DNA of 64,000 nt from Sulfurimonas denitrificans DSM 1251 (lineage in GTDB: Bacteria > Campylobacterota > Campylobacteria > Campylobacterales > Sulfurimonadaceae): positions 1,984,001 through 2,048,000 of the forward strand of contig NC_007575.1 of NCBI RefSeq assembly GCF_000012965.1, given 5' to 3'. The notes under the pieces are model-generated. The model had not been told where the DNA came from, ran no database searches, and saw only the letters and a program-made list of their open reading frames with translations. How positions within the stretch are numbered: position 1 is the first letter of the stretch; each line of letters begins with the position of its first letter. Position numbers and translations under genes: made by a program. Below, in pieces: positions 44,819-60,253 of the stretch.

Positions 44819-46054
44819 CTACTTTATTCCTGCGGCTGCTTCTCTTGCTCTGTCCTTTTTACTTTTGCCTTTGCCTTTTATAGGCTCTTTGCCTTTTTCT
44901 CTCTTTGGCGCTTCTGTAGTAAGCTCAAAGCCCTCTATCTGCTCTCTTTTGAGTCTGATGTTTGAGCGTTTTTCTATCAAGCGAAAATGTGCCTCATCTT
45001 CATGGTCTATAAAGGAGATAGCCATCCCAGCTTTACCTGCTCTTGCCGTTCGTCCTATGCGGTGTATGTAGTCAGCACTTGAGCGCGGAAGGTCAAAATT
45101 GATTACGCATGTAATGTCATTTATATCCAATCCTCTTGAGACTAAATCAGTGGCAAATAAAATCTGGAGTTTTTTTGTTTTGAACTCTTCTAGCGTGTAG
45201 TTTCTATCTTCTTGATGCAAATCGCCATGAAACGAATCGGCGCTAAATCCATGTTTTCTAAACTTTGCAGCTATATTATCAGCAGCTCTTTTGCTTGACA
45301 TAAACACAATTACAAGTTCATATTTTTCACTCTTTAAGAGATGTCTAAGAAGAGGAGCGCGGTTTTCTCTGCTTACCAAAATAGCGCGTTGAACAACACT
45401 CTCAACTGTTGGCTCTTCATCTTCTACACTAACCTCAATGGGATTTTGCATAATCTTTGAAGCGATAAAGAGCATCTTTGGAGGATATGTAGCTGAGAAG
45501 AGTAAGTTTTGGCGCTTTTGCCCAAGTGCTTCAAGGATAAGTTCAAGCTCTTCTGCAAACCCAAAATCAAGCATTTTATCCGCTTCATCAAGAACAAAAA
45601 AATCTACATGTGAGAGAATCATCTGTTTTTTACTTAAAATATCAAGGAAGCGCCCCGATGTAGCAACTAAGATATCGCACCCTTTTTGAATGTTAAAGAG
45701 TTGCTCTCCAATCCCCTCTCCGCCGATTACACCAACAACTTTTGGCTTCTTGCTCATAAACGCACCAAAAGTGTTAAAAGCTTCAACTATCTGTTGTGTC
45801 AGCTCTCTTGTAGGTGTTAGAACAAGGACTTTTATCTTTGCTTTTCCCTCATAGCTATCACGAGATAAAAGCTCTAAAATAGGCAAAATAAAACTGGCAC
45901 TCTTCCCGCTTCCAGTTTGAGCCTTTGCCATAATATCATGACGCTCCAGCACAAGCGGAATAACTCTCTCTTGAATAGGTGTTGGTTTAGTAAAGCCGTT
46001 TTGCTTTAGTGCTTGTAGTATATTTTGCGAAAGTCCAAGTTTTGAAAACGGCAT
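44819..46054 (-). CDS. DEAD-box ATP-dependent RNA helicase (RhlE-like)
   Basis: 411 residues with all helicase motifs: Q-motif with FTKPTPIQE, Walker A AQTGSGKS, PTRELTQQ, DEAD, SAT, and HRIGRTARAG. The C-terminus is a basic tail (KKDRAREAAAGIK) suited to RNA binding. RhlE-type helicases act in ribosome assembly and mRNA decay, especially in the cold. Apparently a single-gene unit. Confidence 0.94.
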   Translation of the reverse strand: MPFSKLGLSQNILQALKQNGFTKPTPIQERVIPLVLERHDIMAKAQTGSGKSASFILPILELLSRDSYEGKAKIKVLVLTPTRELTQQIVEAFNTFGAFMSKKPKVVGVIGGEGIGEQLFNIQKGCDILVATSGRFLDILSKKQMILSHVDFFVLDEADKMLDFGFAEELELILEALGQKRQNLLFSATYPPKMLFIASKIMQNPIEVSVEDEEPTVESVVQRAILVSRENRAPLLRHLLKSEKYELVIVFMSSKRAADNIAAKFRKHGFSADSFHGDLHQEDRNYTLEEFKTKKLQILFATDLVSRGLDINDITCVINFDLPRSSADYIHRIGRTARAGKAGMAISFIDHEDEAHFRLIEKRSNIRLKREQIEGFELTTEAPKREKGKEPIKGKGKSKKDRAREAAAGIK

Positions 46055-46121
46055 TTACTATCCTTCTCTATATTTGAGCGCATTTTAGGTAATTTTGCCT
46101 TTAGAGGATATTTTACTGCTC

Positions 46122-46970
46122 CTATTTATTACTCAGTTGATTGTTTTGGATTGATTCACAGGCTATTAGTATCTTTTTTCTCTCTATTCCCCATCTGTAA
46201 CCGCTCATAGCTCCACTTTTTGCTATGACTCTATGGCATGGGATAAGATAGCCGATGTGATTTTTGCCAATGGCGGAGGCGACTGCTCTGGTAGCTTTTG
46301 GTTTCTCAAGATAGTTTGCTATATCTTGGTAAGTGGCGACTACGCCGTTTGGAAGGTTTAAGAGCGCTTTCCAAACATTTACTTGAAGATTTGTTCCCTT
46401 TACAAAAAGAGAGTATTTTTTGTTTTTTATAAAGATATTTTCTAAGTATTCACGTGCCGCTTTTTCATCAAAATGTAGATTTGCATTTTCCCAGAGTTCG
46501 TTAAATCTTTTAAAAATCTCATTTTTATTCTCATCTATAAAGCCCAGATAACAAACTCCCTTATCAGTAAAACCGATAAGTGCCTCACCAAAAGGAGTCT
46601 GCCCATAACCGTAAGTTATAAGAACATCCTTTCCTTTTTCTCTCCACTCTTTAGGAGTTACACCTATTAGATTTACGAAAAGTTCATGGAGACGGCTACT
46701 GCTTGATAGCCCTATATCCAAACTGCTATCAAGGATAGATTTGGACTCTTTTATATGCTCTTTTGCATAGTTTAGAGTAACAGAGTGCAAAAACTGTTTT
46801 GGGGTAACGCCTACATACTCTTTAAAAACTCTTATAAAATGAAATTTACTCATACCGATATTTTTAGCAACCTCGTCAATAGATGGGTGCTCTTTAAAGT
46901 TTTCATCAATATACTTGATGGCTTTTTCTATCTGTTTATAGTTATCGTGCAGGAGTGAAATTTCATCCAT
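46122..46970 (-). CDS. Ada-like AraC regulator / O6-methylguanine-DNA methyltransferase
   Basis: 282 residues: an AraC-type double helix-turn-helix (about 10-110; MSKFHFIRVFKEYVGVTPKQFL) fused to an MGMT domain with the alkyl-acceptor C245 in IPCHRVIAKSG. It repairs O6-methylguanine and can activate transcription, as E. coli Ada does. The N-terminal zinc domain of Ada (methylphosphotriester sensor) is missing, so activation cannot occur through that route. Eleven bases downstream of glyA. Confidence 0.9.
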   Translation of the reverse strand: MDEISLLHDNYKQIEKAIKYIDENFKEHPSIDEVAKNIGMSKFHFIRVFKEYVGVTPKQFLHSVTLNYAKEHIKESKSILDSSLDIGLSSSSRLHELFVNLIGVTPKEWREKGKDVLITYGYGQTPFGEALIGFTDKGVCYLGFIDENKNEIFKRFNELWENANLHFDEKAAREYLENIFIKNKKYSLFVKGTNLQVNVWKALLNLPNGVVATYQDIANYLEKPKATRAVASAIGKNHIGYLIPCHRVIAKSGAMSGYRWGIERKKILIACESIQNNQLSNK

Positions 46971-46981
46971 TTTTAGCTCTT

Positions 46982-48244
46982 TTAAAAAGTTGATTTATTA
47001 TAAATCACAAAGCCCTTTGCTAACTCTTCTAACTCTTTGTTTATCTTTACATGTAGCTCTGTATCGTTTATATTATCCAAAACATCGCAGATTTTGTTTG
47101 CGATAAGTTCAAACTCTGCTTCTTTCATACCTCTAGCCGTTAGTGCTGGGCTTCCTATACGGATACCGCTTGTTATAAAAGGGCTTCTTGTGTCGTTTGG
47201 AACACCGTTTTTGTTTACTGTGATTCCCGCTCTCTCCAGCGCTGCATCTGCATCTTTACCTGAGAAATCTCTGTTTAAAAACGACACCAACACTAAGTGG
47301 TTGTCCGTTCCGCCAGAGACCAAATCATAACCTCTTTTTGTTAAAACAACTTCAAGCACTTTTGCATTTGCCTTTACTTGTTTTGCATACTCTCTCCATG
47401 ACGGGTCTAGTATCTCTTTAAATGCAACAGCTTTTGCAGCGATAACATGTACAAGCGGACCACCTTGAATACCTGGGAAAATAGCAGAGTTTATCTTCTT
47501 TGCTATCTCTTCATCATCTGTCATAATCATACCGCCTCTTGGACCTCTTAGAGTCTTATGAGTAGTTGTTGTTACTACATGAGCGTGAGGAAATGGACTC
47601 ATATGCTCATCTGCCGCGACTAAACCAGCCACATGAGCGATATCTGCAAAAAGAAAAGCTCCAACAGCATCAGCAATTTCACGGAATTTTTTAAAGTCTA
47701 TCTCTCTAGCATAAGCCGATGCTCCACAAACGATAATCTTTGGTTGAACTGCTTTTGCGATTTCTAAGATTTTATCATAGTCCATTCTTCCGTCTGCCTC
47801 AACACCATAAGTAAAACTTGAGTAGTTTTGCCCTGAAAAGCTCGGTTTGCTACCATGTGTCAAGTGTCCGCCATGACTTAAATCCATACCTAAGAGTTTG
47901 TCACCAGCCTTTAGAAGTGCCGCATAAACAGCTGCATTTGCTTGACTTCCTGAGTGTGGTTGAACATTTGCAAATTTACAGCCAAATATCTCACAAGCTC
48001 TATCAATAGCTAACTGCTCAACAGCATCAGCATATTCGCAACCGCCATAATATCTCTTGTATGGATAACCCTCAGCGTACTTGTTTGTAAATACGCTTCC
48101 CATAGCTTCCATAACCGCCGGACTTGTAAAGTTTTCACTGGCAATCATCTCTAAGTGAGCAGTTTGCCTCTTTAACTCGCCTTCTATGATTGAAAATACT
48201 TCCCTGTCCGCATGTTCTAAACTTTTGCTTGATATAAAACTCAT
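46982..48244 (-). CDS. glyA: Serine hydroxymethyltransferase
   Basis: GlyA interconverts serine and glycine and charges tetrahydrofolate. The PLP lysine is K230 in [20 protein letters not shown] and ENFTSP also match. 420 residues is full length. It links to the methyl cycle that includes luxS. Confidence 0.97.
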
Positions 48245-48302
48245 CTTAGTATCTCCGCTATTATTTTATTTTTAAAATAATATCTCAAGCCAAAATATTT
48301 AA

Positions 48303-48318
48303 CAATCCAAAAATTGCT
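48303..48318 (+). repeat. 16-bp direct repeat flanking the flavin-protein gene (left)
   Basis: CAATCCAAAAATTGCT is present here and again at 48858-48873, one copy on each side of the PNPOx-like gene. Confidence 0.5.
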
Positions 48319-48334
48319 ATATTTTGCTTGCACT

Positions 48335-48808
48335 CTATTTATAGTATCGTCCCACACATTTAATAATATCTATTCTTATGACTGCAGTTCCACTTATCAT
48401 CTTTGGCGGCATCTCTTTATCTATCAGATGCGGAGTAAATTTTTCTATTATTTTATAAAGTGCTTTATACTTTTCATCAAAATCTTCAACAATCGAAGCA
48501 TGTCCTTGCATGATAATGCTGTTAAATTCACTATTTACGTCACATGGGTCTTCTACTCCCTCGTGTAACAGCGAGAGCATCTCATCTACCTCAAAACATA
48601 CGTTTGGATTATCTTTTATATTGTCTATCTTCTCTCCCATAGGCAAACCATGCAGATATATTTTATCTTCAAAATATACAAAATGCATTGGCACAATATA
48701 TGGATAATCATCTTTGGAAAATGTTCCTATTCTTCCAACTTCAGCACGATGCAAAAACTCTAAAATCTGTTCCTGCGTTAAAAGATGTGTTTTTGTTCTA
48801 TGTCTCAT
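48335..48808 (-). CDS. Pyridoxamine 5'-phosphate oxidase-like FMN-binding protein (copy A)
   Basis: 157 residues of the split-barrel PNPOx/NimA type: VGRIGTFSKDDYPYIVPMHFVYF at the N-terminus and a conserved histidine and acidic cluster after it, a pattern shared by flavin-binding oxidoreductases. True PdxH catalysis is unlikely; nitroreductase or haem-related roles are alternatives. Start chosen at ATG 48808, six bases after AAGGAG; the two residues before it in the open frame lie inside that site. A paralogue about 84 percent identical by my count lies at 59600-60073. Confidence 0.84.
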   Translation of the reverse strand: MRHRTKTHLLTQEQILEFLHRAEVGRIGTFSKDDYPYIVPMHFVYFEDKIYLHGLPMGEKIDNIKDNPNVCFEVDEMLSLLHEGVEDPCDVNSEFNSIIMQGHASIVEDFDEKYKALYKIIEKFTPHLIDKEMPPKMISGTAVIRIDIIKCVGRYYK

Positions 48809-48857
48809 ATCCATCTCCTTTTTTCTTGTTAGTATAATGCAATCTATCCGCTAAAAG

Positions 48858-48873
48858 CAATCCAAAAATTGCT
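48858..48873 (+). repeat. 16-bp direct repeat flanking the flavin-protein gene (right)
   Basis: Second copy of CAATCCAAAAATTGCT. Here it extends to a small hairpin, AGCAAT (48856-48861) against ATTGCT (48868-48873). A version with two mismatches lies upstream of copy B near 60128-60143. Confidence 0.5.
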
Positions 48874-48936
48874 CCACTCTTTATTGACAGATGAAACACT
48901 TTGGAATATACTTTGCAAAAAAATAAGGTAAAAATT

Positions 48937-49461
48937 ATGCCTACAGAGAGAAAAAACACAAAAGGTAAAAAAAGGAATATGTTGGAGACTTTTTTTACAA
49001 AAATCTTAAATTTTGATATCTTTTTAGATCAAAGAGCAGATGCTATACTTCTTAAGTTTGTAAATATTTTGCGTTATATTTTTATCATGATTATGATTGC
49101 ATACTTAGCTATTTGTCTTATGAGTCTGTTTCATAAAGTTGTCTCATTTACCTTTGCTCAAGGTGCTCTTGACTTTGCTTCTATAAAAAATATTTTAACA
49201 GATGGACTCTTTACGCTGATAGTACTTGCAATTGTAAAAACACTTTTCATAAAAAATGGTTTTGACTATGCCATAACATTTTTAGAGATTACTTTTGTTG
49301 TTTTAGTTAGAAAAATGATTTTACTAGAGACTGATCCATCTGAAACTCTGCTTCTGCTTGTCCTTGGTTTAACATCTGCACTATTTTTTATTCTTATTGT
49401 TTATATACATGTACTAAAAAACAGAGAAAAAAAAGAACAAGACCTTATAGAGCAAAAATAG
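48937..49461 (+). CDS. PsiE-like membrane protein
   Basis: 174 residues from ATG 48937 (AAGG upstream); the frame is open from a TTG at 48901 but without a good site. Basic N-terminus, then four membrane helices (about 40-62, 76-96, 105-125, 140-165) in the arrangement of the phosphate-starvation-inducible PsiE family. The function of PsiE is unknown. Convergent with the EamA gene, 17 bases away. Confidence 0.78.
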   Translation: MPTERKNTKGKKRNMLETFFTKILNFDIFLDQRADAILLKFVNILRYIFIMIMIAYLAICLMSLFHKVVSFTFAQGALDFASIKNILTDGLFTLIVLAIVKTLFIKNGFDYAITFLEITFVVLVRKMILLETDPSETLLLLVLGLTSALFFILIVYIHVLKNREKKEQDLIEQK

Positions 49462-49478
49462 TATTACTGCTAATTGCT

Positions 49479-50369
49479 CTACTTATTTATTTTCCTATTC
49501 ATATTAAAAAGAGCAACTGCAACAAAAGCGAGCAGACACCCTATAAGCGTTGATAATTCTAGATTTTCACCATATACAACCCAGCTAGAAGCGATAGCGC
49601 CTATTGGGACTATAAACATAAAAACGCCTGTTTGATGAGCGCCAATTTTACCTGCCGAGATAAAATAAAGAGCGGTGCTAAAAGTCCCAGGAACGATTCC
49701 TATAAAGATAATAGTAGCCCAAAAAACAGTGTCATACGCCCCGTAGTCAAACGGATGATAAGGGAGTGCAAACATCATATTTGTAAAGCCCGCCACGCCA
49801 AAAACGACAAGCGTATAAAACATAGGATTTGCTCTTGAAGCCGCCTTTTGCGAAAGTATGGTAACTAATGCCCAGACAACGGCACACCCCAAAAAGTATG
49901 AACTCTCTACATGCAAAAACCCAAAACCCTCAAACGGAATACGAAGTAAAATAAGTGCTCCGAAAATCCCGATGGAGAGTGCCACTACTTGTCTAGTTGA
50001 GACCTTTGTACCTAAAATAGTTATGGACATAAGATATGTAAAAATTGGTGCAAGAGATGTCACCATAGTTCCGCCATATCCAGCTGCTCCATGAGATAGT
50101 CCTGCAAAAAAAAGGTAGTTAAAAAGAGAGGTCAAAAGCCCAGCCATTAACATGTAGATAAATCCAACTCTATCTGATTTGAGTGGACTCTTAAGATACC
50201 AGATAACAGGCAAAAGAGTTATAAACGAGATAGCGTAACGCCAAAATGCTGCAACTTCCGCATGAGAATGCTCTGCTGCAACCTTCCCAGCCGTCCAAGC
50301 AACACCCCAAAAAAGCATAGCAACTATCATAAGTATAAAGTAGCGTGTCTGATTTTTCGTGCTGCTCAT
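49479..50369 (-). CDS. EamA (DMT) family transporter
   Basis: 296 residues with ten membrane helices made of two EamA repeats (first begins FILMIVAMLFWGVAWTAGK). DMT permeases export amino acids, nucleobases or drugs; the substrate is not predictable. It is preceded on its left by the PsiE-like gene, and the 276 bases between its start and the response regulator hold no gene that I can see. Confidence 0.88.
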   Translation of the reverse strand: MSSTKNQTRYFILMIVAMLFWGVAWTAGKVAAEHSHAEVAAFWRYAISFITLLPVIWYLKSPLKSDRVGFIYMLMAGLLTSLFNYLFFAGLSHGAAGYGGTMVTSLAPIFTYLMSITILGTKVSTRQVVALSIGIFGALILLRIPFEGFGFLHVESSYFLGCAVVWALVTILSQKAASRANPMFYTLVVFGVAGFTNMMFALPYHPFDYGAYDTVFWATIIFIGIVPGTFSTALYFISAGKIGAHQTGVFMFIVPIGAIASSWVVYGENLELSTLIGCLLAFVAVALFNMNRKINK

Positions 50370-50604
50370 CTTTTTTGCTCTTAGTTTTTATCGAATTATA
50401 CAAGCTTATTTCTTGATACTGTCGCCTTATTTAAAACCGCTTCTATCTTTTATAAGTTTGCTTTTTAGTTTGATTCATAAAATACAACATCCTTATCTCT
50501 CTAATATCTGCATGTAAACAAAACAAGAGCAGAAACAATAATCTAATAGCACATATAGTAACAGTTTTATATATTTATACCATTAAATAATAAAATTCTT
50601 AAAA

Positions 50605-50622
50605 TGTAACGCTAAATATAAC
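50605..50622 (+). promoter_or_regulatory. Shared 18-mer upstream of the response regulator
   Basis: TGTAACGCTAAATATAAC, two similar hexamers (TGTAAC, TATAAC) with a 12-base period. The same motif, 15 of 18 bases identical, lies at 51435-51452 upstream of the surface protein. The right hexamer could be the -10 box, or the pair could be an OmpR-type operator. Confidence 0.5.
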
Positions 50623-50645
50623 ATTTAAAAATTACTATTGAGTTT

Positions 50646-51053
50646 ATGAATCAAACTAAAGTATTAATCATTGAAGATAACAGATTATCAGCTTTAAAAA
50701 TAAAAAAATTACTCAAATCTAGCGGTTTTGAAGTATGTGGTATCGTATCTAACGCCAGTGATGCCATGGAAATTATTAAATTGTGCAGAGTGGATGGCAT
50801 AATTATTGACATGGAAACTAAATTTAAGTTAAATGGCATTGAGATTGTCTCTTTTATTCATAAAACAGAGAACATACCAACTATTGTTGTAACAAAACAC
50901 CATAATTATCAAATTTTAAAAGAGGCTTCAAAAATACACTTTATTGGTTACATTGTTAAACCTTACCTCGATTCACAACTCTTAAAAGAAGTTAAACTAA
51001 TCTCAATTCGTTTAGGATTAATTACCCCCCCTCAAATGACATCATTGACATAG
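50646..51053 (+). CDS. Receiver half of a frame-split OmpR-type response regulator
   Basis: 135 residues as read: acidic E10/D11, phospho-acceptor D55 (IIIDMET), T83 and K105, a complete receiver. The frame then runs through a tract of seven Cs and stops at 51051. Adding one C gives a continuous 226-residue protein with a winged-helix domain, the normal length for an OmpR/PhoB regulator. As it stands the product lacks DNA-binding ability. No kinase gene is adjacent. It lies 452 bases upstream of the surface-protein start. Confidence 0.8.
   Translation: MNQTKVLIIEDNRLSALKIKKLLKSSGFEVCGIVSNASDAMEIIKLCRVDGIIIDMETKFKLNGIEIVSFIHKTENIPTIVVTKHHNYQILKEASKIHFIGYIVKPYLDSQLLKEVKLISIRLGLITPPQMTSLT
51025..51031 (+). 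repeat. Homopolymeric C7 tract at the domain junction
   Basis: Seven Cs between the receiver and the DNA-binding half. C7 ends the protein early; C8 (or C5) restores the full frame; C6 stops at once (TGA at 51037-51039). A slippage site of this type is the hallmark of phase-variable genes in Campylobacterota. Confidence 0.85.
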
Positions 51054-51325
51054 GAAACAATTATCACTACAGCAGATATGAAAAAAAACTATACCACTCA
51101 AACATACATGTAAAACTCACAAAACAAGAACTCTCTTTAGTTGAAATTCTGGTTCAAAATATCGGACAAATTGTTACTCTTGAGACTATTGAATTTATAC
51201 TTTGGCACGACAAAGCAGTAACTGATGGCTCTCGCAGACAGTTGCTTTTTAGACTTAAGTCAAAAATGCAAGGAGTTACAATTGAAGTCATCAAAGGAGT
51301 TGGCTACAAACTTCACAAGCAGTAG
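51032..51325 (+). pseudogene. Winged-helix half of the split response regulator (out of frame)
   Basis: Open in the frame one base off the receiver: 97 codons ending in TAG at 51323-51325. The translation contains KLTKQELSLVEILVQN, TDGSRRQLLFRLKSK and VIKGVGYKL, the recognition-helix and wing pattern of OmpR-type Trans_reg_C domains. It has no start codon of its own with a ribosome-binding site. It could be an inactive state of a switchable gene, a decayed gene or a sequencing error. Confidence 0.85.
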
Positions 51326-51434
51326 CCATCCAAACCACATATTACAAAAATAGATATATTTTCACTTTCACAAATGACAAATAATTATATTACACAAAGT
51401 TACATCTTCTAAATTTTCTAGCATAATCAATCAA

Positions 51435-51452
51435 TGTAACACTATTTATAAC
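51435..51452 (+). promoter_or_regulatory. Shared 18-mer upstream of the surface protein
   Basis: TGTAACACTATTTATAAC, 53 bases before the ATG. Matches 15 of 18 bases of the motif ahead of the response regulator. An inverted TGTAAC (GTTACA, 51400-51405) lies upstream. The 180-base gap has no gene; AGGA at 51495-51498 is the ribosome-binding site. Confidence 0.5.
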
Positions 51453-51505
51453 GCTAGATTTATAAAATATGGTGTTTTTAAAATAAAATCAAAAAGGATT
51501 AGAAA

Positions 51506-54500
51506 ATGGCACTAACTACAGCGCAAAAAGAGACAATAATCATGAAAACTGCTTCGGCACTTTTCAACAAGGCATTTAGTCAAGAAACGTCAGCGAACTT
51601 CGTTACATTTTATGACAATAATGAAAACGATTTGGGGAAACTCTCAGATGCATTTATTGGTTCATCAGTATATGAAGCTCAGTATGCAAATGCTACTACA
51701 AAAGCAGACTTCGGTACTATTTTGATGGCAAAATACAACATGACTTATGGTGGCTCATCAGATGCTGATATGAAAATGACAGCTTTTGTTGACTACAGCT
51801 TTGCGCATGCAGCTGATTCAAACTCTCTTCGCACTATTCAAGCAGTAGATAAGTTTATCGTTGCAACACTTATCCCATCTATGACAGTAGATAATGTTTT
51901 TGAAAAGATGCATTCAGCTATTTCAAACAAAGCAGAAGTTGCTATAGCATTTAAAAACGATGCTTCAAGTGTAGGACAAGAGTTAAGTCTTGTTACTATT
52001 ACAGATGATCACATAACAGTTGATACTGCAAAGGTATCTATAAACCCAACAGCTGCTACAACAGGTATTTTACTTGATGGCTACATCTCTGGCGGTACAG
52101 TATTTGCAGATGCAAATGGTGATGGCATCTGGAACGCAGGCGAAGCAAAAGCAACAACAGATGCAAATGGTAACTTTACTCTCATAGGTGCAAAAGGAAC
52201 TATAGTAGGTTCAGGTGGTACTGATATCTCTACAGGTTTAGCTTTTACGGGTACATTTAGCGCTCCATCAGGTTCTACAACTATCTCACCTCTTACAACA
52301 CTCATAAATGAAGTTATGAAATCTTCAGGTACAACAGCCTCAGCTGCTGCAGCAACAGTTGCAAATGCATTAGGATTAAGCTCAACTACAAACCTAATGA
52401 CATTTGACCCAATCACAGCAGCGTCAAGCTCTACTCTTAGTGCAGCAGAAAAAGCAGCGGCAATCAACATCCAATCAGCTGCCGTTCAAGTAAACAACAT
52501 GATTGCTCAATCAGCTGCTATGTTAAATGGTGCAGGTGCAGGAAGTATAGCTAGTGGTTCAACCGCAGCTTCAAAAGCTTTAGCAGATATGATAGTCTCA
52601 AGCGCAGCAACTGCTACAAAAACTCTCGACCTCTCTTCAGCCGCAACTATTGAGTCTTTCTTAAATGCCTCAGCTACAAAAGCAGGAGCTACTGTAGAGC
52701 AAGTTGCAAAAGTATCAGCAGTTGCTTCAAGCGTTGCTACTTCAACAGCAAACATAAACACAGCTATGCAAACAGCAGTAACAGGCGCAGCAGTTGGAAC
52801 AAGTGCAACAGACATATTTGCCTCTCTAGCTAAAACTCAAGTAGCAGCAAATGATATTGCAGCATTAACTACTACAGCAGCATCTTCTGGAAGTACAACT
52901 GCATTGGTAGCGGGTTCTAGTACTGCTGCTATAAATAGTGCGGCGGCTGCGGCTGTTATTACTCCAGTTGTTACTCCGCCTGCGAGTGGTGGTGGTAGTT
53001 CTACGCCTGCAACTACATTTACAGCAACAGAAGATGATAGCACACATGTAGTAACTTTTGGTGGAACTGCAACAGGTGATATTTCTGTTGCTTGGGCAGG
53101 TACTGTTGGTGATTCATTAGCGACTTTTACAAGAGGTGGCAAAACTGCAACAGCAGATATCACCACTACTGATAAGATTACATTAGTTAGCGGACAGACA
53201 CTAGCAGATACTGCAGCTGATTTGGCAGGACTAACCATCGACGGTACAGGTACGGTAAATGTAACGGCACTTGAAGATACTTTAGATGCAGATTTAAGCG
53301 GGATTGCGGCTACTACTGTTACGGCAGCAATGACAGGCTTGGTAGGTGAAGGTTCAGTACCGCAATTCACAGGAAATTTAGGAAATGCGGCACTGACTTT
53401 AACTGGTTTTGCAGATTTTTTAAATAGCTCTCCAACGATTGGTGTTGATGCTTCCTTTGTAGTTAATGCAAGCTCTTATATCATGCTTAGTGCGGCAAAT
53501 GCAAGTGCTAAAACGATTACAGGTAGTGGCTCTCTTTCAGTATTTGCACTTGCAAGTGATACAAATACTGCAGGTTTTGCTTCTTCTTTAACAGTGACTG
53601 ATATTGTTACTGCTTCTGCAGATGTATCTGCATTTACAAACCTATCAACTATTGATGGATTCAATGTTCATTCAGAACAGACACTAACAATTACAGCCGC
53701 TCAAGCAGCGAGCAAATCTATTTTAGGTTCAGGAAATGTAACAGTAAAAGACCTAGCCGTAGATACAGACCTTTCAACTATTACTGCTAGCGGTACTTTA
53801 TCGGCAACAGTTACAGAAACGCTCGATCTAACAGAGGCTAATCTTAGCGGACTCGATGCTTTAACAATTTCTGATGAAGCAGGCACTGCGATTACAGTTA
53901 CAATAACCCCTGCGCAATACGCAGCATTAGTCGGAAAAGTCATACTGGGTGCGAATGATACACTGGTTTCTACAGATACAACAATCCCGACTTCGACTAT
54001 TACTTCGGCTGCATTTGATGAAAACACAGGCACACTGACTATCACGGGTACAAATTTCGATACTATTTTAGAAACTACGGAAGACGCTGCTACGGATGTT
54101 AAAGCGAGACTAGACTGGAGCAAACTGAGCTGGGATATCAACGGCGACGACGGCTCTACGGCAAATGTAAGTTTTGAAGTGGGCGATATCAGTTCAGTAA
54201 AAGTTACAGATGCTACTACACTCACTATCACGCTGACAAATACAAAAACAGCGGCACTCATAGCTACAGCAGGATATGGAGCTACGGGCAATGCTGATAC
54301 ACTCGATGTATCAACAGGATTTATCAGAGACATGTCACACAACGCGGCAACCACAGATGCCGCAGCAACTGATGCTATCGCGATTACGGCGGATAATACA
54401 GCTCCGACTATAGCAAGCGTAACTGTAGCAGACGGTACTTATAAGATTGGTGACACGGTGGCAGTAACTGTAACGGCAGGAAGTAGCGAAACGGGACTCA

Positions 54501-56122
54501 CTCTGGCAGGAACATTCAACGGACAAACATTGAGTGCAATCACGGATAATGAAGATGGAACTTATACGGGTACATATACCGTGGTTTCTGGCGATACAGG
54601 CATTGCGGATGAAGGAAGTGTGACAACAAGTATTACATTGACCGACGCAGCGAGCAATATAAGTACAGCAACTACAAGCGTAACGCTATCGGGAGAGAGC
54701 ATCGATGCTACCGCTCCGACAGCACCAACAGCCGTAACACTAACCACAGTAGGTGGAACATTAGTTGAAAATACCTTGAACGGTACAAATACTAACTTAA
54801 CGGCATCTGCGACTATTACCGCAGGAGAGGCTACGGGAGGCTCTGCCGTGCTAAAAGTAGATGGCACAACCATTGCGACCGACAGCACGATTGCAGCTGA
54901 AGATACGACAGTGAGTTTTGACCTTGAAAAAACTACGGCAGAAGAACTCCAAGCAGCAGTTGCAGCAGGCGGTACGGTTACGGTAGAGGCGATAGACGCG
55001 GCAGGAAATGCTACGGCAAGCACAGAGAGTAATCCGACACTTACGGTTGATTATACGGCTCCAGTCGTTAGTAGCGTTGCCATCACAAGTGCGACAGGAC
55101 ATCATGCTACTAATGGTACAATTAATGGCGGCAGTTTGATTACAGTTACTGTAACTTTTGATGAAGCAGTAACAATAACAGGTACTCCTCAACTTGGTTT
55201 AGCTGTTGGTGGTGATACGGTTCAAGCATCGTATCTTTCAGGAACGGGTACAACTGAGATAGTGTTTAAAACTACAGATTATTTATTTAATAAAAATGAT
55301 GCAGATGGTGTTGCTATTGCACAGAATGCTTTGTCATTGAATAGCGGTACAATTAAAGATGCAGCAGGAAATGATGCAACAATAACACATGTTGCTGTTG
55401 CCGATAACAGTGCTTATAAACTTGACGGCACTGTACCGACGGCTTCTAATTTTACAGTTACTTCAACGACAGTGGGTGCAACTTTAAATGAAATTGGCGA
55501 ACTTGTTGTTTTTGATACTTCAGGCAGTAAAATCGACAATATTAGTAGTGTTGTTGGCTTAGCAGCAGGCACTCCAGGCACTGTTACTGTAGCTGCTCAA
55601 AGTAACATTACTAATGCAAGTTTTCAACCTATGGATGCCGCTGGTAATGGTTCAGTTGAAAATGTCAGCATGATTTTAGGTACAACAGAAATCGATGCGA
55701 TTTCAGAAGCATCGTTTGGACAATTCATCTTTGGTTTTGCAGGGGCAGATGCTTTTACACTCAAAGCTGGCAACGATGGTACAGCATTGACTCAAATCGC
55801 TGATTATGCAGTGAATACAACAGGAGAAAGCATTGCCTTTGGCAGTACGGCAGCTGTTTGGACTACAGCAGTTGAGACTTGGACAATCGACAACGGTGTG
55901 GCTACAAAAACTGGTGCAACCGTTTCAGACTTCTACACAGCATTTGTTACAGCTACAGGAGCTGCTGGTGAGGTAGTTGCATTCGTAGATGGCGGCAATA
56001 CCTATCTTTTCGGTGAAGGTGCTGGAACTGATGATGCTGATAATACTGCAGTTGTACTTGTAGGTGTTGAAGCTACTGCAGTTGCTATAACTGCAGCTGC
56101 AGGTACAGTTTTAATAGCTTAA
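51506..56122 (+). CDS. Large Ig-like/beta-repeat surface protein, probably type I secreted
   Basis: 1538 residues, rich in Ala, Thr, Ser, Gly and Asp, almost no Cys, no signal peptide. N-terminal domain (1-185) beginning MALTTAQKE, as in S-layer proteins such as RsaA. Then a YISGGTVFADANGDG segment with an acidic calcium-loop look (190-255), an Ala-rich helical part (260-485), a Gly/Ser/Pro linker (488-502), beta segments (503-830), and at least three Ig-like units (about 832-965, 966-1075, 1076-1185, 1186-1313) of the AAGN and TAP type. The C-terminus (1400-1538: FIFGFAGADAFTL, FVDGGNTYLFGEG) resembles the uncleaved secretion ends of type I substrates. No type I exporter is in the window. 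Long antisense frames across it are base-composition shadows. Confidence 0.85.
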   Translation: MALTTAQKETIIMKTASALFNKAFSQETSANFVTFYDNNENDLGKLSDAFIGSSVYEAQYANATTKADFGTILMAKYNMTYGGSSDADMKMTAFVDYSFAHAADSNSLRTIQAVDKFIVATLIPSMTVDNVFEKMHSAISNKAEVAIAFKNDASSVGQELSLVTITDDHITVDTAKVSINPTAATTGILLDGYISGGTVFADANGDGIWNAGEAKATTDANGNFTLIGAKGTIVGSGGTDISTGLAFTGTFSAPSGSTTISPLTTLINEVMKSSGTTASAAAATVANALGLSSTTNLMTFDPITAASSSTLSAAEKAAAINIQSAAVQVNNMIAQSAAMLNGAGAGSIASGSTAASKALADMIVSSAATATKTLDLSSAATIESFLNASATKAGATVEQVAKVSAVASSVATSTANINTAMQTAVTGAAVGTSATDIFASLAKTQVAANDIAALTTTAASSGSTTALVAGSSTAAINSAAAAAVITPVVTPPASGGGSSTPATTFTATEDDSTHVVTFGGTATGDISVAWAGTVGDSLATFTRGGKTATADITTTDKITLVSGQTLADTAADLAGLTIDGTGTVNVTALEDTLDADLSGIAATTVTAAMTGLVGEGSVPQFTGNLGNAALTLTGFADFLNSSPTIGVDASFVVNASSYIMLSAANASAKTITGSGSLSVFALASDTNTAGFASSLTVTDIVTASADVSAFTNLSTIDGFNVHSEQTLTITAAQAASKSILGSGNVTVKDLAVDTDLSTITASGTLSATVTETLDLTEANLSGLDALTISDEAGTAITVTITPAQYAALVGKVILGANDTLVSTDTTIPTSTITSAAFDENTGTLTITGTNFDTILETTEDAATDVKARLDWSKLSWDINGDDGSTANVSFEVGDISSVKVTDATTLTITLTNTKTAALIATAGYGATGNADTLDVSTGFIRDMSHNAATTDAAATDAIAITADNTAPTIASVTVADGTYKIGDTVAVTVTAGSSETGLTLAGTFNGQTLSAITDNEDGTYTGTYTVVSGDTGIADEGSVTTSITLTDAASNISTATTSVTLSGESIDATAPTAPTAVTLTTVGGTLVENTLNGTNTNLTASATITAGEATGGSAVLKVDGTTIATDSTIAAEDTTVSFDLEKTTAEELQAAVAAGGTVTVEAIDAAGNATASTESNPTLTVDYTAPVVSSVAITSATGHHATNGTINGGSLITVTVTFDEAVTITGTPQLGLAVGGDTVQASYLSGTGTTEIVFKTTDYLFNKNDADGVAIAQNALSLNSGTIKDAAGNDATITHVAVADNSAYKLDGTVPTASNFTVTSTTVGATLNEIGELVVFDTSGSKIDNISSVVGLAAGTPGTVTVAAQSNITNASFQPMDAAGNGSVENVSMILGTTEIDAISEASFGQFIFGFAGADAFTLKAGNDGTALTQIADYAVNTTGESIAFGSTAAVWTTAVETWTIDNGVATKTGATVSDFYTAFVTATGAAGEVVAFVDGGNTYLFGEGAGTDDADNTAVVLVGVEATAVAITAAAGTVLIA

Positions 56123-56160
56123 GAACATGAACTTTAAAGATTTTATAAAAAAGGAAAGGG

Positions 56161-56173
56161 GGTGTCAGGCACC
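56161..56173 (+). repeat. REP-like palindrome 1
   Basis: GGTGTCAGGCACC followed by ATTTT, 39 bases after the surface-protein stop; may act as its terminator. Confidence 0.7.
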
Positions 56174-56360
56174 ATTTTGTTCCATTTTGATACTTTTCTT
56201 AGTTTTTTCTTAAATGCTTAAACACCTCAAAGCCTCACTTTCTCTTAGGAGTTGGTGGGACTTTTTTGCTTCTACTTTACATAATCATCATTCTCTTGAG
56301 GTAAATTTCTTCTTTTTTATTTTATTTCTATTCTTTTTTATATTTTGACATAATCTCTAT

Positions 56361-56603
56361 ATGACATTACAAGAACGAAAAGATAAAGCCGATATAATTG
56401 CTAAGAAGAGTGACATCATCTATAAAAAAATGGTTGTACTGTTAGCTTCTGCTGGAGCTATTGGTAGTTATGGCTTAAATCAGATAGGATTTGAAAAGTA
56501 CTTTCTAATGTTTTTATTTGGAATATTAGTAGTAGGTTTAATGTTCAACTATTTTTCCATTAATAAAGCAAAAAGACAGATTGAGGAGTTAGAAAATGAG
56601 TAG
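56361..56603 (+). CDS. Small membrane protein
   Basis: 80 residues: charged N-terminus (MTLQERKDKADIIAK), hydrophobic helices at about 25-42 and 47-63, and an acidic, helical C-terminus. No family is recognised. Its last codons overlap the start of a 32-residue membrane peptide. Confidence 0.6.
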   Translation: MTLQERKDKADIIAKKSDIIYKKMVVLLASAGAIGSYGLNQIGFEKYFLMFLFGILVVGLMFNYFSINKAKRQIEELENE

Positions 56604-56694
56604 TGGAATATTATTAGGTGTTACAATTATTATAGCAACGGTTATAGCCTATGCTGCATATAAAAACCACTGGAAGATAGCAGACTACTTCTAA
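56596..56694 (+). CDS. 32-residue single-helix membrane peptide
   Basis: A short frame, MSSGILLGVTIIIATV and so on, with one transmembrane helix and a Lys/His-rich end (KNHWKIADYF). It overlaps the preceding gene by 8 bases, with a GAGGAG at 56584-56589. Two tiny membrane proteins in overlap suggest a coupled pair; their role is unknown. Confidence 0.5.
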   Translation: MSSGILLGVTIIIATVIAYAAYKNHWKIADYF

Positions 56695-56696
56695 GA

Positions 56697-56875
56697 GAAA
56701 AGGGGTGACAGGCACCATTTTATGTACAAGGGCATAAACAAAAACTTATAGGAGCATGGAATGAATACTTCAATTACAAGAGTTGATTTCGGTGATAAAA
56801 TTTATATATATTTAAAAAGTAATGATATTTTAACTATTCCTTATAGTTATACTAAAAAAATTCAATATGCAAAAA
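56697..56875 (+). repeat. 179-bp exact duplication, copy 1
   Basis: Identical by reading to 58150-58328 (offset 1453). Contains REP-like palindrome 2, a ribosome-binding site and the first 38 codons of a DUF2442 gene. The right end borders palindrome 3. Confidence 0.9.
56704..56716 (+). repeat. REP-like palindrome 2
   Basis: GGTGACAGGCACC followed by ATTTT, within the 179-bp duplication. Confidence 0.7.
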
Positions 56876-56955
56876 TAAAGAAAAAGGTGTCTGGCACCTT
56901 TTTGCTATCAACAACCATAAACCTAAAAAGTGCTATAATTTTTAACAAACTTTAA
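56761..56955 (+). pseudogene. Truncated DUF2442 gene
   Basis: The first 38 residues (MNTSITRVDFGDKIYIYL...) equal those of the intact gene at 58214, then the frame runs into the REP-like hairpin 56881-56903 and unrelated codons. The C-terminal half with the DUF2442 core is missing. AGGAG stands before the ATG, so a fragment may still be made, but it should be non-functional. Confidence 0.8.
56881..56903 (+). repeat. REP-like palindrome 3 (hairpin/terminator)
   Basis: AAAAAGGTG (56881-56889) pairs with CACCTTTTT (56895-56903) around TCTGG; core GGTGTCTGGCACC. It has the form of a terminator for either strand and stands exactly where the truncated DUF2442 gene diverges. Confidence 0.75.
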
Positions 56956-56966
56956 AGGATATCAAA

Positions 56967-57194
56967 ATGCAATTAACTATTGATATTAGGGATTCCGCTA
57001 TTGATAAAATCATGTATATCTTAGATAATCTCAAAGCAGATGTAAAAATCATAAAAAAAGTTGATACAAATTCTTTAGATATCGAAACTGTTTCAAAAGA
57101 TGATTCGGACTATCAAATTATTTTAAACGCTAGAGATGATAGAAAAAATAACCCAAAAAATTATGGTAGTTTAAATGATATAAAATGGGATTAG
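56967..57194 (+). CDS. RelB-like antitoxin
   Basis: 75 residues, start with AAAGGA upstream. A short N-terminal helical region (MQLTIDIRDSAIDKIMYILDNL) and a charged, probably disordered C-terminus fit a type II antitoxin. It resembles in layout the antitoxin at 58946-59155. The toxin starts 4 bases after its stop. Confidence 0.75.
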   Translation: MQLTIDIRDSAIDKIMYILDNLKADVKIIKKVDTNSLDIETVSKDDSDYQIILNARDDRKNNPKNYGSLNDIKWD

Positions 57195-57198
57195 TTTA

Positions 57199-57459
57199 GT
57201 GTACAAAATAATTCTTCATAAAAAAGTTATTAAATTTATCAACAGTAGAAATCCAAAAGACAAGCAAAAAATTAAAGAAAAATTTGAGCTTTTACAAAAT
57301 AACCCTTATCCGTCAAACTATAATATAGATGTCAAAAAGATGCGAAATGCCAATGGATTTAGATTAAGAATCAGCGATTATAGATTTTTATATGATGTTG
57401 TCGAAGATGAATTGATAATATATATGGAAAACGGTGATAACAGAGGCGATATATATTAA
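57199..57459 (+). CDS. RelE-family toxin
   Basis: 86 residues: KIILHKKVIKFINSRNPKDKQKIKEKF helix pair, then the strand FRLRISDYRFLYDVVEDELIIYM, the RelE beta-sheet with basic residues. Start GTG. Type II toxin paired with the upstream antitoxin. RelE-type enzymes cleave mRNA on the ribosome. Confidence 0.85.
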   Translation: MYKIILHKKVIKFINSRNPKDKQKIKEKFELLQNNPYPSNYNIDVKKMRNANGFRLRISDYRFLYDVVEDELIIYMENGDNRGDIY

Positions 57460-57478
57460 AAATGGAAATAAGGAAATA

Positions 57479-57490
57479 GGTGCGAACACC
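57479..57490 (+). repeat. REP-like element 4 (variant)
   Basis: GGTGCGAACACC, followed by ATTAGCACC which can also pair with its left arm. Divergent member of the repeat family. Confidence 0.4.
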
Positions 57491-57583
57491 ATTAGCACCA
57501 AAAAGACTACTACTATGTTGAACTTCAAAAGATTCCTTTCCTCTGAATTCTTGCCCACCTCATCCTTTGCCGAAAAAAAAAGC

Positions 57584-57616
57584 AAAAAAAAAGGGCTAAA
57601 GCCGAAGCTCTAACCC
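57584..57616 (-). terminator. Strong intrinsic terminator
   Basis: On the minus strand a 10-bp stem (57593-57602 against 57607-57616) closes a UUCG tetraloop and is followed by nine Us. All ten pairs form with two G-U wobbles on the minus strand but leave two A-C mismatches on the plus strand, so the minus strand is the transcribed one. The decayed toxin gene ends 170 bases upstream. Confidence 0.85.
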
Positions 57617-57650
57617 TTATTCAAAGTAGTCTGATAGTTAGTCAGACAGG
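57584..57650 (-). ncRNA. Candidate small RNA
   Basis: Ahead of the terminator lies a second hairpin, GTCTGA (57629-57634) against TCAGAC (57642-57647) with a seven-base loop. The loop (CTAACTA on the RNA strand) is complementary to the UUAG of the terminator stem. The transcript would be about 65 bases or longer, with its 5' end near 57650-57700, where AT-rich TATGAT-like sequences occur. The 327-base gap 57460-57786 holds nothing else except the REP-like elements. It may equally be an extended 3' UTR. Confidence 0.45.
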
Positions 57651-57732
57651 ATATCTTTTGTCGTTCAAACAATAAAAAATCATATCATAAAAAACTAACT
57701 TTTTAATATCCTTCCAAAAACACAAAAACATA

Positions 57733-57748
57733 GGAGTCAGTCGCCACC
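57733..57748 (+). repeat. REP-like element 5 (variant)
   Basis: GGAGTCAGTCGCCACC followed by TTTTTG, a divergent member of the repeat family. Confidence 0.4.
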
Positions 57749-57786
57749 TTTTTGTCTTAGTTTTTCATTAAACTGTTTTTTTAATT

Positions 57787-58014
57787 CTATTTATAAATAT
57801 CTTTACGATGCCCAATTTTGATGACGATTATAACTACTTCATCATCCTTTATCTCATAAATTACCCTATAATCAGCAACTAGTAAGCGATAATAATGGGA
57901 GAGATTTTCTACAAGCTTTGTTTTAATGACTTCTATAATTTTCTTTTGCCACAACTTATCAATTTGTTTTAAATCTTTAATAACTTTATCATCAATCAAG
58001 AGTTTATAACTCAA
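57787..58014 (-). pseudogene. Decayed RelE-family toxin
   Basis: 75 residues from the TTG at 58014, nearly identical to the intact toxin at 63268-63525 but lacking ten residues (PHLGKPLVGN) after LVEN. The DNA is a clean 30-bp loss between short AATC repeats. The open frame reaches back to 58035, but that part is the antitoxin read out of frame. Loss of the loop probably alters the fold; its antitoxin partner is broken too. Confidence 0.8.
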
Positions 58015-58149
58015 GCGCTCTCTCCAACTCCTCAAGAGTTATAAGATTTCTATCTTCTGCATTTGAGCGTTTTTGCACTTCATAATACTCTTGCGTATCA
58101 TCAAGATAATTTCTCAAAGCTTCTTTAACAAAAAACTCTTTGGTCGTTT
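58004..58149 (-). pseudogene. 5'-truncated ribbon-helix-helix antitoxin
   Basis: About 47 codons equal to the C-terminal part (from RPKSFFVKEALRNYL on) of the antitoxin at 63069-63278, ending in TAA at 58004-58006. The N-terminal DNA-binding segment and start are gone: the sequence stops exactly where the 179-bp duplication begins at 58150. Confidence 0.85.
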
Positions 58150-58328
58150 GAAAAGGGGTGACAGGCACCATTTTATGTACAAGGGCATAAACAAAAACTT
58201 ATAGGAGCATGGAATGAATACTTCAATTACAAGAGTTGATTTCGGTGATAAAATTTATATATATTTAAAAAGTAATGATATTTTAACTATTCCTTATAGT
58301 TATACTAAAAAAATTCAATATGCAAAAA
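58150..58328 (+). repeat. 179-bp exact duplication, copy 2
   Basis: Identical to 56697-56875. Its left end cuts the antitoxin remnant; its right end lies inside the intact DUF2442 gene, so this is probably the source copy for the gene part. Confidence 0.9.
58157..58169 (+). repeat. REP-like palindrome 6
   Basis: GGTGACAGGCACC, same as palindrome 2, in duplication copy 2. Confidence 0.7.
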
Positions 58329-58456
58329 AAGAGCAGCTTTTAAACTACCGTATAATTGGTGGTGGGATTGGAGTGCATTTTGAAGAAATAGATGAAGATA
58401 TTTCACTTAACGGTATTATCACATATAAAATCAATCACGAACTAAAAGCTTCTTGA
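58214..58456 (+). CDS. DUF2442-family protein
   Basis: 80 residues with the DUF2442 core YRIIGGGIGVHFEEIDEDISLNGII (read in parts, 48-72) and an N-terminal beta region. DUF2442 proteins often pair with DUF4160 toxins as antitoxins, but no DUF4160 gene is adjacent. AGGAG precedes the ATG. The neighbouring duplication carries its first 38 codons a second time. Confidence 0.78.
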   Translation: MNTSITRVDFGDKIYIYLKSNDILTIPYSYTKKIQYAKKEQLLNYRIIGGGIGVHFEEIDEDISLNGIITYKINHELKAS

Positions 58457-58476
58457 ACATTGAGCCAAAACAAGGG

Positions 58477-58490
58477 GGATGTCAGGCACC
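58477..58490 (+). repeat. REP-like palindrome 7
   Basis: GGATGTCAGGCACC followed by ATTTTG, 21 bases after the DUF2442 stop. Confidence 0.6.
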
Positions 58491-58512
58491 ATTTTGTATT
58501 GAACATTTATAT

Positions 58513-58536
58513 AATAATGGGGTCAGACCCTATTAT
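58513..58536 (+). repeat. REP-like element 8 (GGGGTCAGACCC type)
   Basis: An inverted repeat with core GGGGTCAGACCCT flanked by AAT/ATT arms. Different core but the same general form and neighbourhood. Confidence 0.5.
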
Positions 58537-58545
58537 GTAACATAG

Positions 58546-58558
58546 GGTGTCAAGTACC
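58546..58558 (+). repeat. REP-like palindrome 9
   Basis: GGTGTCAAGTACC, one or two bases away from the consensus GGTGTCAGGCACC. Confidence 0.5.
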
Positions 58559-58640
58559 ATTACAGGAAGAAAACTCACTTTTTTCTTAAATTTTGTTTAT
58601 TGAGGGAAAGACTATATGTTAATTTTTTTAGTTTGCAGTG

Positions 58641-58946
58641 TCAGCTTTCATCATCATGGAATATATCTCTCTCATTAAAATCAATGTATTTATAAATTGC
58701 TAATATGGTTATATTCTCTTTGTTTATTTTATAAATAACTTTATATCCCAACACCACATAGTCCCTTATATGATGCATATTCATAGTTGCATTGATTTTA
58801 CCGATGTATGGGTAAGTTACTAATATTTCTATTTTATTTTTGATTTTGGATAGATATTGAATAGCGGTTTTTTTATTGTCTAATGAGATAAACTTTTTAA
58901 TGTTTTGCAACTGCTCATAAGATTCTTTTGAATAAACAATTTTCAT
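58641..58946 (-). CDS. RelE/ParE-family toxin
   Basis: 101 residues: N-terminal helix pair (ESYEQLQNIKKFISLDNKKTA), the TYPYIG turn, and strands DYVVLGYKVIYKI, ITILAIYKYID, with the order and charge of ParE/RelE toxins. Start overlaps the antitoxin stop by one base (58946). Confidence 0.83.
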   Translation of the reverse strand: MKIVYSKESYEQLQNIKKFISLDNKKTAIQYLSKIKNKIEILVTYPYIGKINATMNMHHIRDYVVLGYKVIYKINKENITILAIYKYIDFNERDIFHDDES

Positions 58947-59155
58947 TATTTTAGTAATTCACCCCATAACTCATCATGCTCCATTGTTTCACCGTTTTGC
59001 TCTTGATTAAGAGCTTTTAAAATCATCATCTGTTCTTTATTATAGGTAAGATTGTCAATTATTTCAATCTCTTCACCTTTTTGTGAAATTTGATTAAGCA
59101 TACTCATAACAACCTCAATGGTCTTATCTTCTGCTCTTAAATGAAGTGTTTGCAT
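58946..59155 (-). CDS. RelB-like antitoxin
   Basis: 69 residues, basic and charged N-terminus (MQTLHLRAEDKTIEVVMSML) and a C-terminal acidic helix. Antitoxin-first, overlapped by the toxin. Similar in length and layout to the 75-residue antitoxin at 56967-57194, so the two may be related. Confidence 0.75.
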   Translation of the reverse strand: MQTLHLRAEDKTIEVVMSMLNQISQKGEEIEIIDNLTYNKEQMMILKALNQEQNGETMEHDELWGELLK

Positions 59156-59268
59156 TTTAGGTTTCCCCTTGTTTATGGAGTTTAAATTTTCTTAATTGTA
59201 CCTAAAATTCATAAACAAGAACTACACTAACTACACCCCTGTGAATGAATCTCCACTTTTTTCTAGTC

Positions 59269-59285
59269 CCCAAGTGCAACTTGGG
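59269..59285. repeat. Hairpin CCCAAGT-N3-ACTTGGG
   Basis: A 7-bp perfect inverted repeat in the 215-base gap between the antitoxin and ywbE. The CCCAAG...CTTGGG form resembles short repeats scattered in many bacterial genomes; here one copy is visible. Confidence 0.5.
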
Positions 59286-59370
59286 AGTGAGGAAATTGCT
59301 TCATTTTAAACTACTTCTAAATTACAAATTTTAACTATAATACATCTACTAATCAAAAGGGAATTTATAC

Positions 59371-59565
59371 ATGTTAGACGCAACTCAAAGAAAAGATATA
59401 AAAAGTGGTCAAAGTGTAGCTATCGTTTTAAAGCAAGATCAGCGCAGCGGAATTTTAACACATGGCATAGTCAGGGATATTTTGACAAAATCACCAAACC
59501 ACCATCACGGCATAAAAGTTCGTTTGATGAGTGGTGAAGTCGGACGAGTTAAAGAGATAAACTAA
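59371..59565 (+). CDS. ywbE: YwbE-family protein
   Basis: 64 residues matching the YwbE family almost end to end (KDIKSGQSVAIVLKQDQRSG, LTHGIVRDIL, HGIKVRL). These are small beta-barrel proteins of unknown function. AAGGGAA stands before the ATG. It looks like an independent gene among repeats. Confidence 0.85.
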   Translation: MLDATQRKDIKSGQSVAIVLKQDQRSGILTHGIVRDILTKSPNHHHGIKVRLMSGEVGRVKEIN

Positions 59566-59599
59566 GGTTTAATTTCAAACCTGCTATTGGCACACTTTT

Positions 59600-60073: not shown

Positions 60074-60078
60074 TTCTA

Positions 60079-60087
60079 CCCCCCCCC
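60079..60087 (-). repeat. G9 tract in the ribosome-binding region of copy B
   Basis: On the minus strand: eight As, nine Gs, then TAGAA and the ATG at 60073. The G tract covers the position of the Shine-Dalgarno sequence. Its length would change spacing and pairing with 16S rRNA. Confidence 0.8.
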
Positions 60088-60253
60088 TTTTTTTTGTTGA
60101 CAGTATAATGTAACCCGTAAGCTAAAAACAACCCGAAAATTGCTTTTTTACTTTTTGTAATAACAAACTTAGATTTTTATCACATGTATAAAATATATAA
60201 AATGATACCTTTTACTTAAGGTCTAATTGAGATAGATTGTGATTAAATTAAAC

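What the first reader, a model, noticed from the sequence alone, without database searches (positions are those of the whole stretch)
50646..51325. Response regulator split by a C7 tract that one base would repair
Seen: a complete receiver (D55, T83, K105) reads into seven Cs at 51025-51031 and stops; the frame one base off holds a full winged-helix domain ending at 51323-51325. Adding one C gives 226 residues, the normal OmpR size. Known: Campylobacterota switch genes by slippage in C/G tracts. Inference: the regulator is phase-variable and this copy is in the off state, or it is a recent pseudogene or a sequencing error.
Basis: partly seen in the sequence, partly recalled or inferred. Interest (0 to 1): 0.8.

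Follow-up and report, generated by a model that had tools for sequence, protein, structure and literature searches.

The report
Broken regulator beside giant surface protein
In this bacterium a gene-switching protein is cut in two by a reading-frame break at or beside a run of seven Cs, while two related species keep it whole next to a similar giant protein that it may control; whether the break flips back and forth or is just a recent loss is not shown.

Summary
An OmpR/PhoB-type response regulator has an intact receiver in one frame (50646-51053) and an intact winged-helix domain in another (to 51325). The frames part at or beside a C7 run (51025-51031), one of only four C/G runs of seven or more in the 2.2-Mb genome. 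The two close orthologues found among 135 genus genomes (225 and 227 aa) are unbroken and lack the C run. In all three genomes a giant repeat protein follows directly. A shared direct repeat (TRTAACRCY-N3-TATAAC, 12-bp period) lies upstream of both genes in all three, 6 of 6 regions. I infer that the regulator controls itself and the giant protein, and that this copy is OFF. Neither half has a second lesion, so the break is young.

Slippage at the C run is the likely cause; no MutL was found. But C7 is at the lower limit for phase-variable tracts, the genome has no poly-C repertoire, and the tract is not conserved. Phase variation is possible, not shown; I prefer a recent slippage knockout that reverts rarely. 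Sequencing error and programmed frameshifting are less likely.

The parts
50646..51053 (+). receiver half of an OmpR/PhoB-type response regulator, stops after the C run
   Evidence: ORF 135 aa; Pfam Response_reg 2.3e-17; 49-50% identical to G004 orthologue
51025..51031 (+). C7 tract in the inter-domain linker where the two frames part
   Evidence: lesion interval 50996-51053
51032..51325 (+). winged-helix DNA-binding half, in the other frame, without a usual start codon before 51242
   Evidence: 55-57% identical to G004
50603..50622 (+). candidate operator upstream of the regulator (direct repeat, half-sites 12 bp apart)
   Evidence: de novo shared 20-mer; exact pattern at 50606-50625
51433..51452 (+). 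candidate operator upstream of the giant gene, same direct repeat
   Evidence: exact pattern at 51436-51455
51506..56122 (+). giant repeat protein (1538 aa), conserved neighbour and predicted target
   Evidence: 52% over 476 aa to the G155 neighbour, which carries DUF4214, Ig-like domains and a sub-cut-off RTX match

Best explanation
This is an orphan OmpR/PhoB-type response regulator that, when whole, controls its own promoter and that of the giant repeat protein next door, by binding a conserved direct repeat. In the sequenced lineage a slippage error at a newly arisen C run in the linker put the two domains out of frame, so only a receiver without DNA-binding domain is made and the module runs without its regulator. 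The break is young; reversion by a further length change in the run is possible but probably rare, so this is mainly a recent (perhaps laboratory) loss of function and not a dedicated switch. Shown: the frame break, two intact orthologues, gene order, the shared motif, absence of further lesions, no MutL found. Inferred: slippage as cause, DNA binding, activation rather than repression, effect on the giant protein.
For: Both domains intact by Pfam, no other stop or frame break; zero lesions in 651 bp bound the time under no constraint to 0.029-0.043 substitutions per site, under assumed indel:substitution ratios of 0.1-0.05. Intact orthologues G004 (225 aa) and G155 (227 aa), 79% identical to each other, without a C run. 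Regulator followed by giant repeat gene in 3 of 3 genomes. Shared motif upstream of both genes in 3 of 3 genomes: match sum 88 of 100 versus at most 74 in 100 shuffles. In the own genome the exact pattern occurs only at these two promoters (it was drawn from them), and all 5 one-mismatch sites lie inside ORFs. No MutL over cut-off in the own genome, 11 of 14 controls over it. The break interval holds one of the genome's four tracts.
Against: No reads, second strain or expression data. The break might lie beside the C run. The shared motif could be a core-promoter element, and part of its conservation is plain orthology of promoters; within single genomes the regulator-versus-giant match is only moderately above shuffles (fractions reaching it 0.033, 0.13, 0.02; sum 50, a value also reached among 300 shuffles). 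The pattern used, at up to one mismatch, finds 4 of the 6 promoter sites. The 12-bp half-site period differs from the 10-11 bp that I recall for OmpR/PhoB sites.
Confidence: 0.5

Rival explanations
1. True phase variation: the C run is a contingency tract that switches the regulator, and with it the giant protein, ON and OFF at high frequency; the sequenced cell was OFF.
For: C7 meets the >=7 G/C cut-off used for Campylobacter (passages of PMC6321876; passages of PMC4965091); no MutL found; the tract lies in an inter-domain linker; the predicted target is a giant repeat protein; a C. jejuni response regulator, FlgR, is reported to go OFF and ON by tract changes (passages).
Against: Tract not present in either intact orthologue; tracts not enriched in the genome, one run >=8; the other genic C/G7 tract lies in frame in an unbroken ORF; PMC6321876 says its cut-offs include tracts whose mutability may be below 1e-5; PMC8355987 calls FlgR/FlgS changes non-reversible.
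Confidence: 0.25
2. Sequencing or assembly error: the living strain has an intact regulator.
For: Homopolymers are where length errors fall (general knowledge); both orthologues are intact; no second lesion.
Against: Single-contig, 100% complete genome; I recall this size as the finished Sanger-era genome of Sulfurimonas denitrificans DSM 1251, and C7 is not a hard case for Sanger reads (recalled). A second split response regulator in the same genome has no long tract at its break, so breaks of this gene class need not be tract artefacts.
Confidence: 0.14
3. Recoding: a -1 ribosomal frameshift (heptamer C CCC CCT in the zero frame) or polymerase slippage makes some full-length protein beside the short receiver.
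For: The frame relation is that of a -1 shift, the run has the X XXY YYZ form, and AGGA lies 8 nt upstream (read).
Against: No stimulating structure downstream (MFE -3.9 kcal/mol, z 0.26, 113 of 200 shuffles fold as well); the two orthologues have neither break nor tract.
Confidence: 0.07
4. The receiver alone is the functional product (single-domain regulator) and the 3' half is debris.
For: Receiver pocket residues are kept.
Against: The winged-helix half is at least as well conserved as the receiver (55-57% versus 49-50%), with SRRQLLFRLK and KGVGYKLHK kept, and no lesion has accumulated.
Confidence: 0.04

Closest known systems
Response regulator FlgR / sensor FlgS of Campylobacter jejuni
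   Same: A two-component regulator put out of frame by a length change in a homopolymer tract, in the same phylum (passages of PMC8355987 and PMC3930126).
   Different: FlgR is an RpoN-dependent flagellar regulator with A/T tracts; here the protein is OmpR/PhoB-type, the tract is poly-C, and switching is untested. PMC8355987 calls the FlgR/FlgS changes non-reversible because the tracts are under 7; PMC3930126 describes revertants.
Poly-G/C contingency loci of Campylobacter
   Same: Intragenic C run of at least 7 at a frame change; MutL not found here, and C. jejuni lacks functional mismatch repair (PMC8355987 section 4).
   Different: C. jejuni tracts are mainly G9-G10 and 12 to 29 per genome in four genomes; here C7, four tracts in the genome, not conserved.
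OmpR/PhoB-family response regulators
   Same: Response_reg plus Trans_reg_C domains, about 226 residues, candidate direct-repeat operator.
   Different: Split frame in this copy; half-site period 12 bp; no histidine kinase recognised by eye among the ORFs at 46000-56000 (those neighbours were not scanned with Pfam).

Membership tests
OmpR/PhoB-family response regulator | receiver domain with acidic pocket, phospho-Asp, Thr and Lys | tested here: met
   Pfam Response_reg 2.3e-17; E10/D11, D55, T83, K105 counted on the translation (roles of these residues recalled)
OmpR/PhoB-family response regulator | C-terminal winged-helix Trans_reg_C domain | tested here: met
   5.3e-8, 33.3 bits against a cut-off of 26.2, but in another frame
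OmpR/PhoB-family response regulator | both domains in one reading frame | tested here: not met
   frames part within 50996-51053; met in both orthologues. So the intact gene is a member and this allele is a broken one
Simple-repeat phase-variable gene | repeat tract at or above the usual cut-off (>=7 G/C) | tested here: met
   C7, exactly at the cut-off
Simple-repeat phase-variable gene | tract length varies within or between isolates, reversible at high rate | not testable with these tools
   no reads, one genome per species
Simple-repeat phase-variable gene | tract kept in orthologues (supportive, not strictly required) | tested here: not met
   no C run in G004 or G155
Programmed -1 frameshift gene | slippery heptamer plus stimulating structure, conserved across orthologues | tested here: not met
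   heptamer form present; structure z 0.26; not conserved

The most novel reading that the evidence does not exclude
A free-living sulfur-oxidising campylobacterotan may carry a one-target surface switch: a slippage-prone regulator that drives its own gene and a single giant surface-type protein through a private operator, so that a tract-length change at one locus toggles the cell's coat without touching the coat gene.
Probability: 0.2. Interest if true: 0.6.

Novelty: new member of a known kind. Interest (0 to 1): 0.38.

Why it matters
It identifies a regulator-plus-giant-protein module with a candidate private operator in what I take to be Sulfurimonas, and shows that the sequenced genome carries the regulator broken, so expression or attachment work on this strain may reflect an OFF state. 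If the tract proves variable, poly-C phase variation would extend to a regulator in a member of the phylum that is not host-associated; I saw no such report in the listings (Sulfurimonas denitrificans + phase variation, 1 paper; Sulfurimonas + phase variation + homopolymeric, the same paper), which I did not open.

Tried and rejected
Strain-level comparison: not possible, one genome per species; the genome-contig scan gave only a 28% relative. Genome-wide enrichment of C runs as support for a contingency repertoire: not found; the result goes the other way (very high counts in some order members may include contig-end runs, as in G049:C2). Frameshift-stimulating RNA structure: none. Separate translation of the winged-helix half: no usual start before 51242. 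Module in more distant genomes: around the G048 hit no giant gene was seen among ORFs of 120 aa or more and a regex of mine found no motif, but that regex used a wrong spacing and also missed the window's own sites, so the motif was not tested there; the G028 hit is cut by its contig end. Motif elsewhere in the own genome: the five one-mismatch sites lie in ORFs. Pfam and NCBIfam on the window's giant protein: no family at E<=1. Literature: one search gave 17 papers and one search gave 9 (8 listed), listings only, none opened; DUF4214 with Sulfurimonas gave 0. My notebook calls the neighbour of the second split regulator a kinase and gives the half-site period as 11 bp; counting letters gives 12 bp, and the kinase was not checked.

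Full report
Where it is. The window is bases 1,984,001-2,048,000 of a single-contig genome of 2,201,561 bp, rated 100% complete. I recall this size as that of Sulfurimonas denitrificans DSM 1251; no tool named it, and one search gives only the taxonomy of that species.

The observation. C7 is at 51025-51031. The receiver ORF runs 50646-51053 and hits Response_reg at 2.3e-17; the other frame, to the TAG at 51323-51325, hits Trans_reg_C at 5.3e-8. By stop codons the frame change lies in 50996-51053; by alignment with orthologues it lies after the receiver's GL and before the DIG of the DNA-binding half, about 51021-51046. In the second frame the first usual start codons are TTG at 51242 and ATG at 51266, inside the domain. 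So this allele gives a receiver followed by ten linker or out-of-frame residues and no DNA-binding domain, unless recoding occurs.

Relatives. A search of 135 genus genomes (own included; 79 of them at least 90% complete and at most 5% contaminated; 21 candidates scored per genome at most) with the intact G004 protein gave, besides the window's own halves, G004 itself and G155, 79% identical to it. The next full-length hits, listed at E<=1e-20, are 26-38% identical; a contig-edge fragment in G028 matches the second half at 46%. Both orthologues have both domains in one frame (225 and 227 aa) and no C run at the linker. The window's halves are 49-50% (receiver) and 55-57% (winged helix) identical to G004.

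Neighbourhood. In all three genomes the next gene downstream is a giant repeat protein: 1538 aa in the window, 1706 aa in G155, and in G004 a 93-aa DUF4214 piece plus 1501 aa separated by one in-frame TGA. The window's and G155's proteins match at 52% over 476 residues. G155's carries DUF4214, bacterial Ig-like domains and an RTX match below cut-off, and the G004 pieces carry DUF4214 and RTX matches; the window's protein hits no Pfam or NCBIfam family. Surface location is inferred from these neighbours' domains.

A candidate operator. A scan without a preset motif of the upstream regions of both genes in three genomes (six sequences, 180-200 bp each) found one best shared 20-mer, AATGTAACGCTAAATATAAC in the window, with matches of 17, 20, 16, 18 and 17 of 20 in the other five: sum 88, against a mean of 69.0 and a maximum of 74 in 100 dinucleotide shuffles. 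Within each genome the best regulator-versus-giant pair is this same motif in 3 of 3, though its score alone is only moderately above shuffles (fractions reaching it 0.033, 0.13 and 0.02; sum 50 versus mean 44.7 and maximum 50 in 300). It is a direct repeat with half-sites 12 bp apart. In the own genome the pattern drawn from these sites occurs exactly only at these two promoters; 5 more sites have one mismatch, all inside ORFs, and the reversed-pattern control gave 4 matches in that genome, so those 5 are at chance level. Across the three genomes that pattern, at up to one mismatch, finds 4 of the 6 promoter sites. The likely reading is an operator for this regulator at its own and its neighbour's promoter; a shared core-promoter element is the alternative. 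The repeat ends 21-23 bp before the regulator's start codon and 53-62 bp before the giant gene's; that the regulator activates is a guess.

Age and cause of the break. Neither half (651 bp examined) has another stop or frame break; with assumed indel:substitution ratios of 0.05 and 0.1, zero lesions bounds unconstrained drift to 0.043 and 0.029 substitutions per site. The break is thus young against a divergence of about half of all residues. The genome holds four C/G runs of 7 or more: an intergenic C7, this one, the C9 at window 60079-60087, and a G7 in frame in an unbroken 202-aa ORF that I recognise as pyrE-like (the name is recalled). A 58-bp interval hits one of these by chance at about 1e-4, so tract and break are very likely linked, with the caution that the finding was selected for it. 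No MutL was found (two matches of 19.6 and 18.3 bits, cut-off 180; 11 of 14 control genomes over it); a MutS-like frame scores 290.6 bits, under the mutS1 cut-off of 641.7. Incomplete mismatch repair would make slippage easier.

Is it phase variation? For: a tract of 7 G/C is the cut-off used to list putative phase-variable genes in Campylobacter (passages of PMC6321876; passages of PMC4965091), and FlgR of C. jejuni is reported to be switched by tract changes (passages of PMC8355987 and PMC3930126). Against: PMC6321876 also says that such cut-offs include sequences whose mutability may be too low for switching; section 4 of PMC8355987 (read whole) gives mainly G9 and G10 for C. jejuni tracts; PMC8355987 calls FlgR/FlgS changes in tracts under 7 non-reversible, while PMC3930126 describes revertants. 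In one search (99 genomes) the own genome has 2 C8 matches (one C9 run); 53 of the 60 genus genomes have 10 or fewer, and 7 of the 39 others of the order have 49 to 606. The tract is absent from both orthologues. So phase variation is possible and unproven; I give it 0.25.

Other readings. Programmed -1 frameshifting has the right heptamer form but no downstream structure and no conservation. Sequencing error cannot be excluded; single-contig completeness and my recollection of a Sanger-finished genome make it the lesser bet. The same genome has a second response regulator split without a long tract at its break (receiver 75.4 bits; winged-helix ORF 24.8 bits, just under the cut-off of 26.2), which shows that broken regulators occur here without a C run, or that split forms exist.

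Verdict. The added result is the module: regulator, giant neighbour and shared motif in three genomes, with the regulator broken only here. It is a new member of a known kind, of moderate interest, raised if tract length proves variable.

Noticed in passing
window 60079-60087: C9 (G9 on the - strand), the only C/G run of 8 or more in the genome, ends 5 nt before the start codon of a pyridoxamine-phosphate-oxidase-like gene (59600-60073, -), where a ribosome-binding site would lie. Its paralogue at 48335-48814 (-) has an AAGGAG instead. Length changes could tune translation.
   Followed up: partly
L038 1641-2290 (G000:C1:1064000-1068000): A second response regulator in the same genome is split into a receiver ORF and a winged-helix ORF in different frames, with no long homopolymer at the break. 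The gene after it has a substrate-binding-type start and may be a sensor (not checked). In 135 genus genomes the winged-helix half has only 36-40% matches in G156 and G004 at E<=1e-14.
   Followed up: partly
L037 8144-12940 (G004): The giant repeat protein of G004 is interrupted by one in-frame TGA after the DUF4214 part.
   Followed up: partly
window 56150-61686: A 31-nt repeat around GGTGTCAGGCACCATTTT occurs six times (68-87% to the reference copy), and a 184-nt copy pair at 56697 and 58150 is 99% identical.
   Followed up: no
window 57199-57459, 57787-58035, 58641-58946: Three ParE-family toxin-like genes with adjacent small ORFs within 2 kb, downstream of the giant gene.
   Followed up: partly
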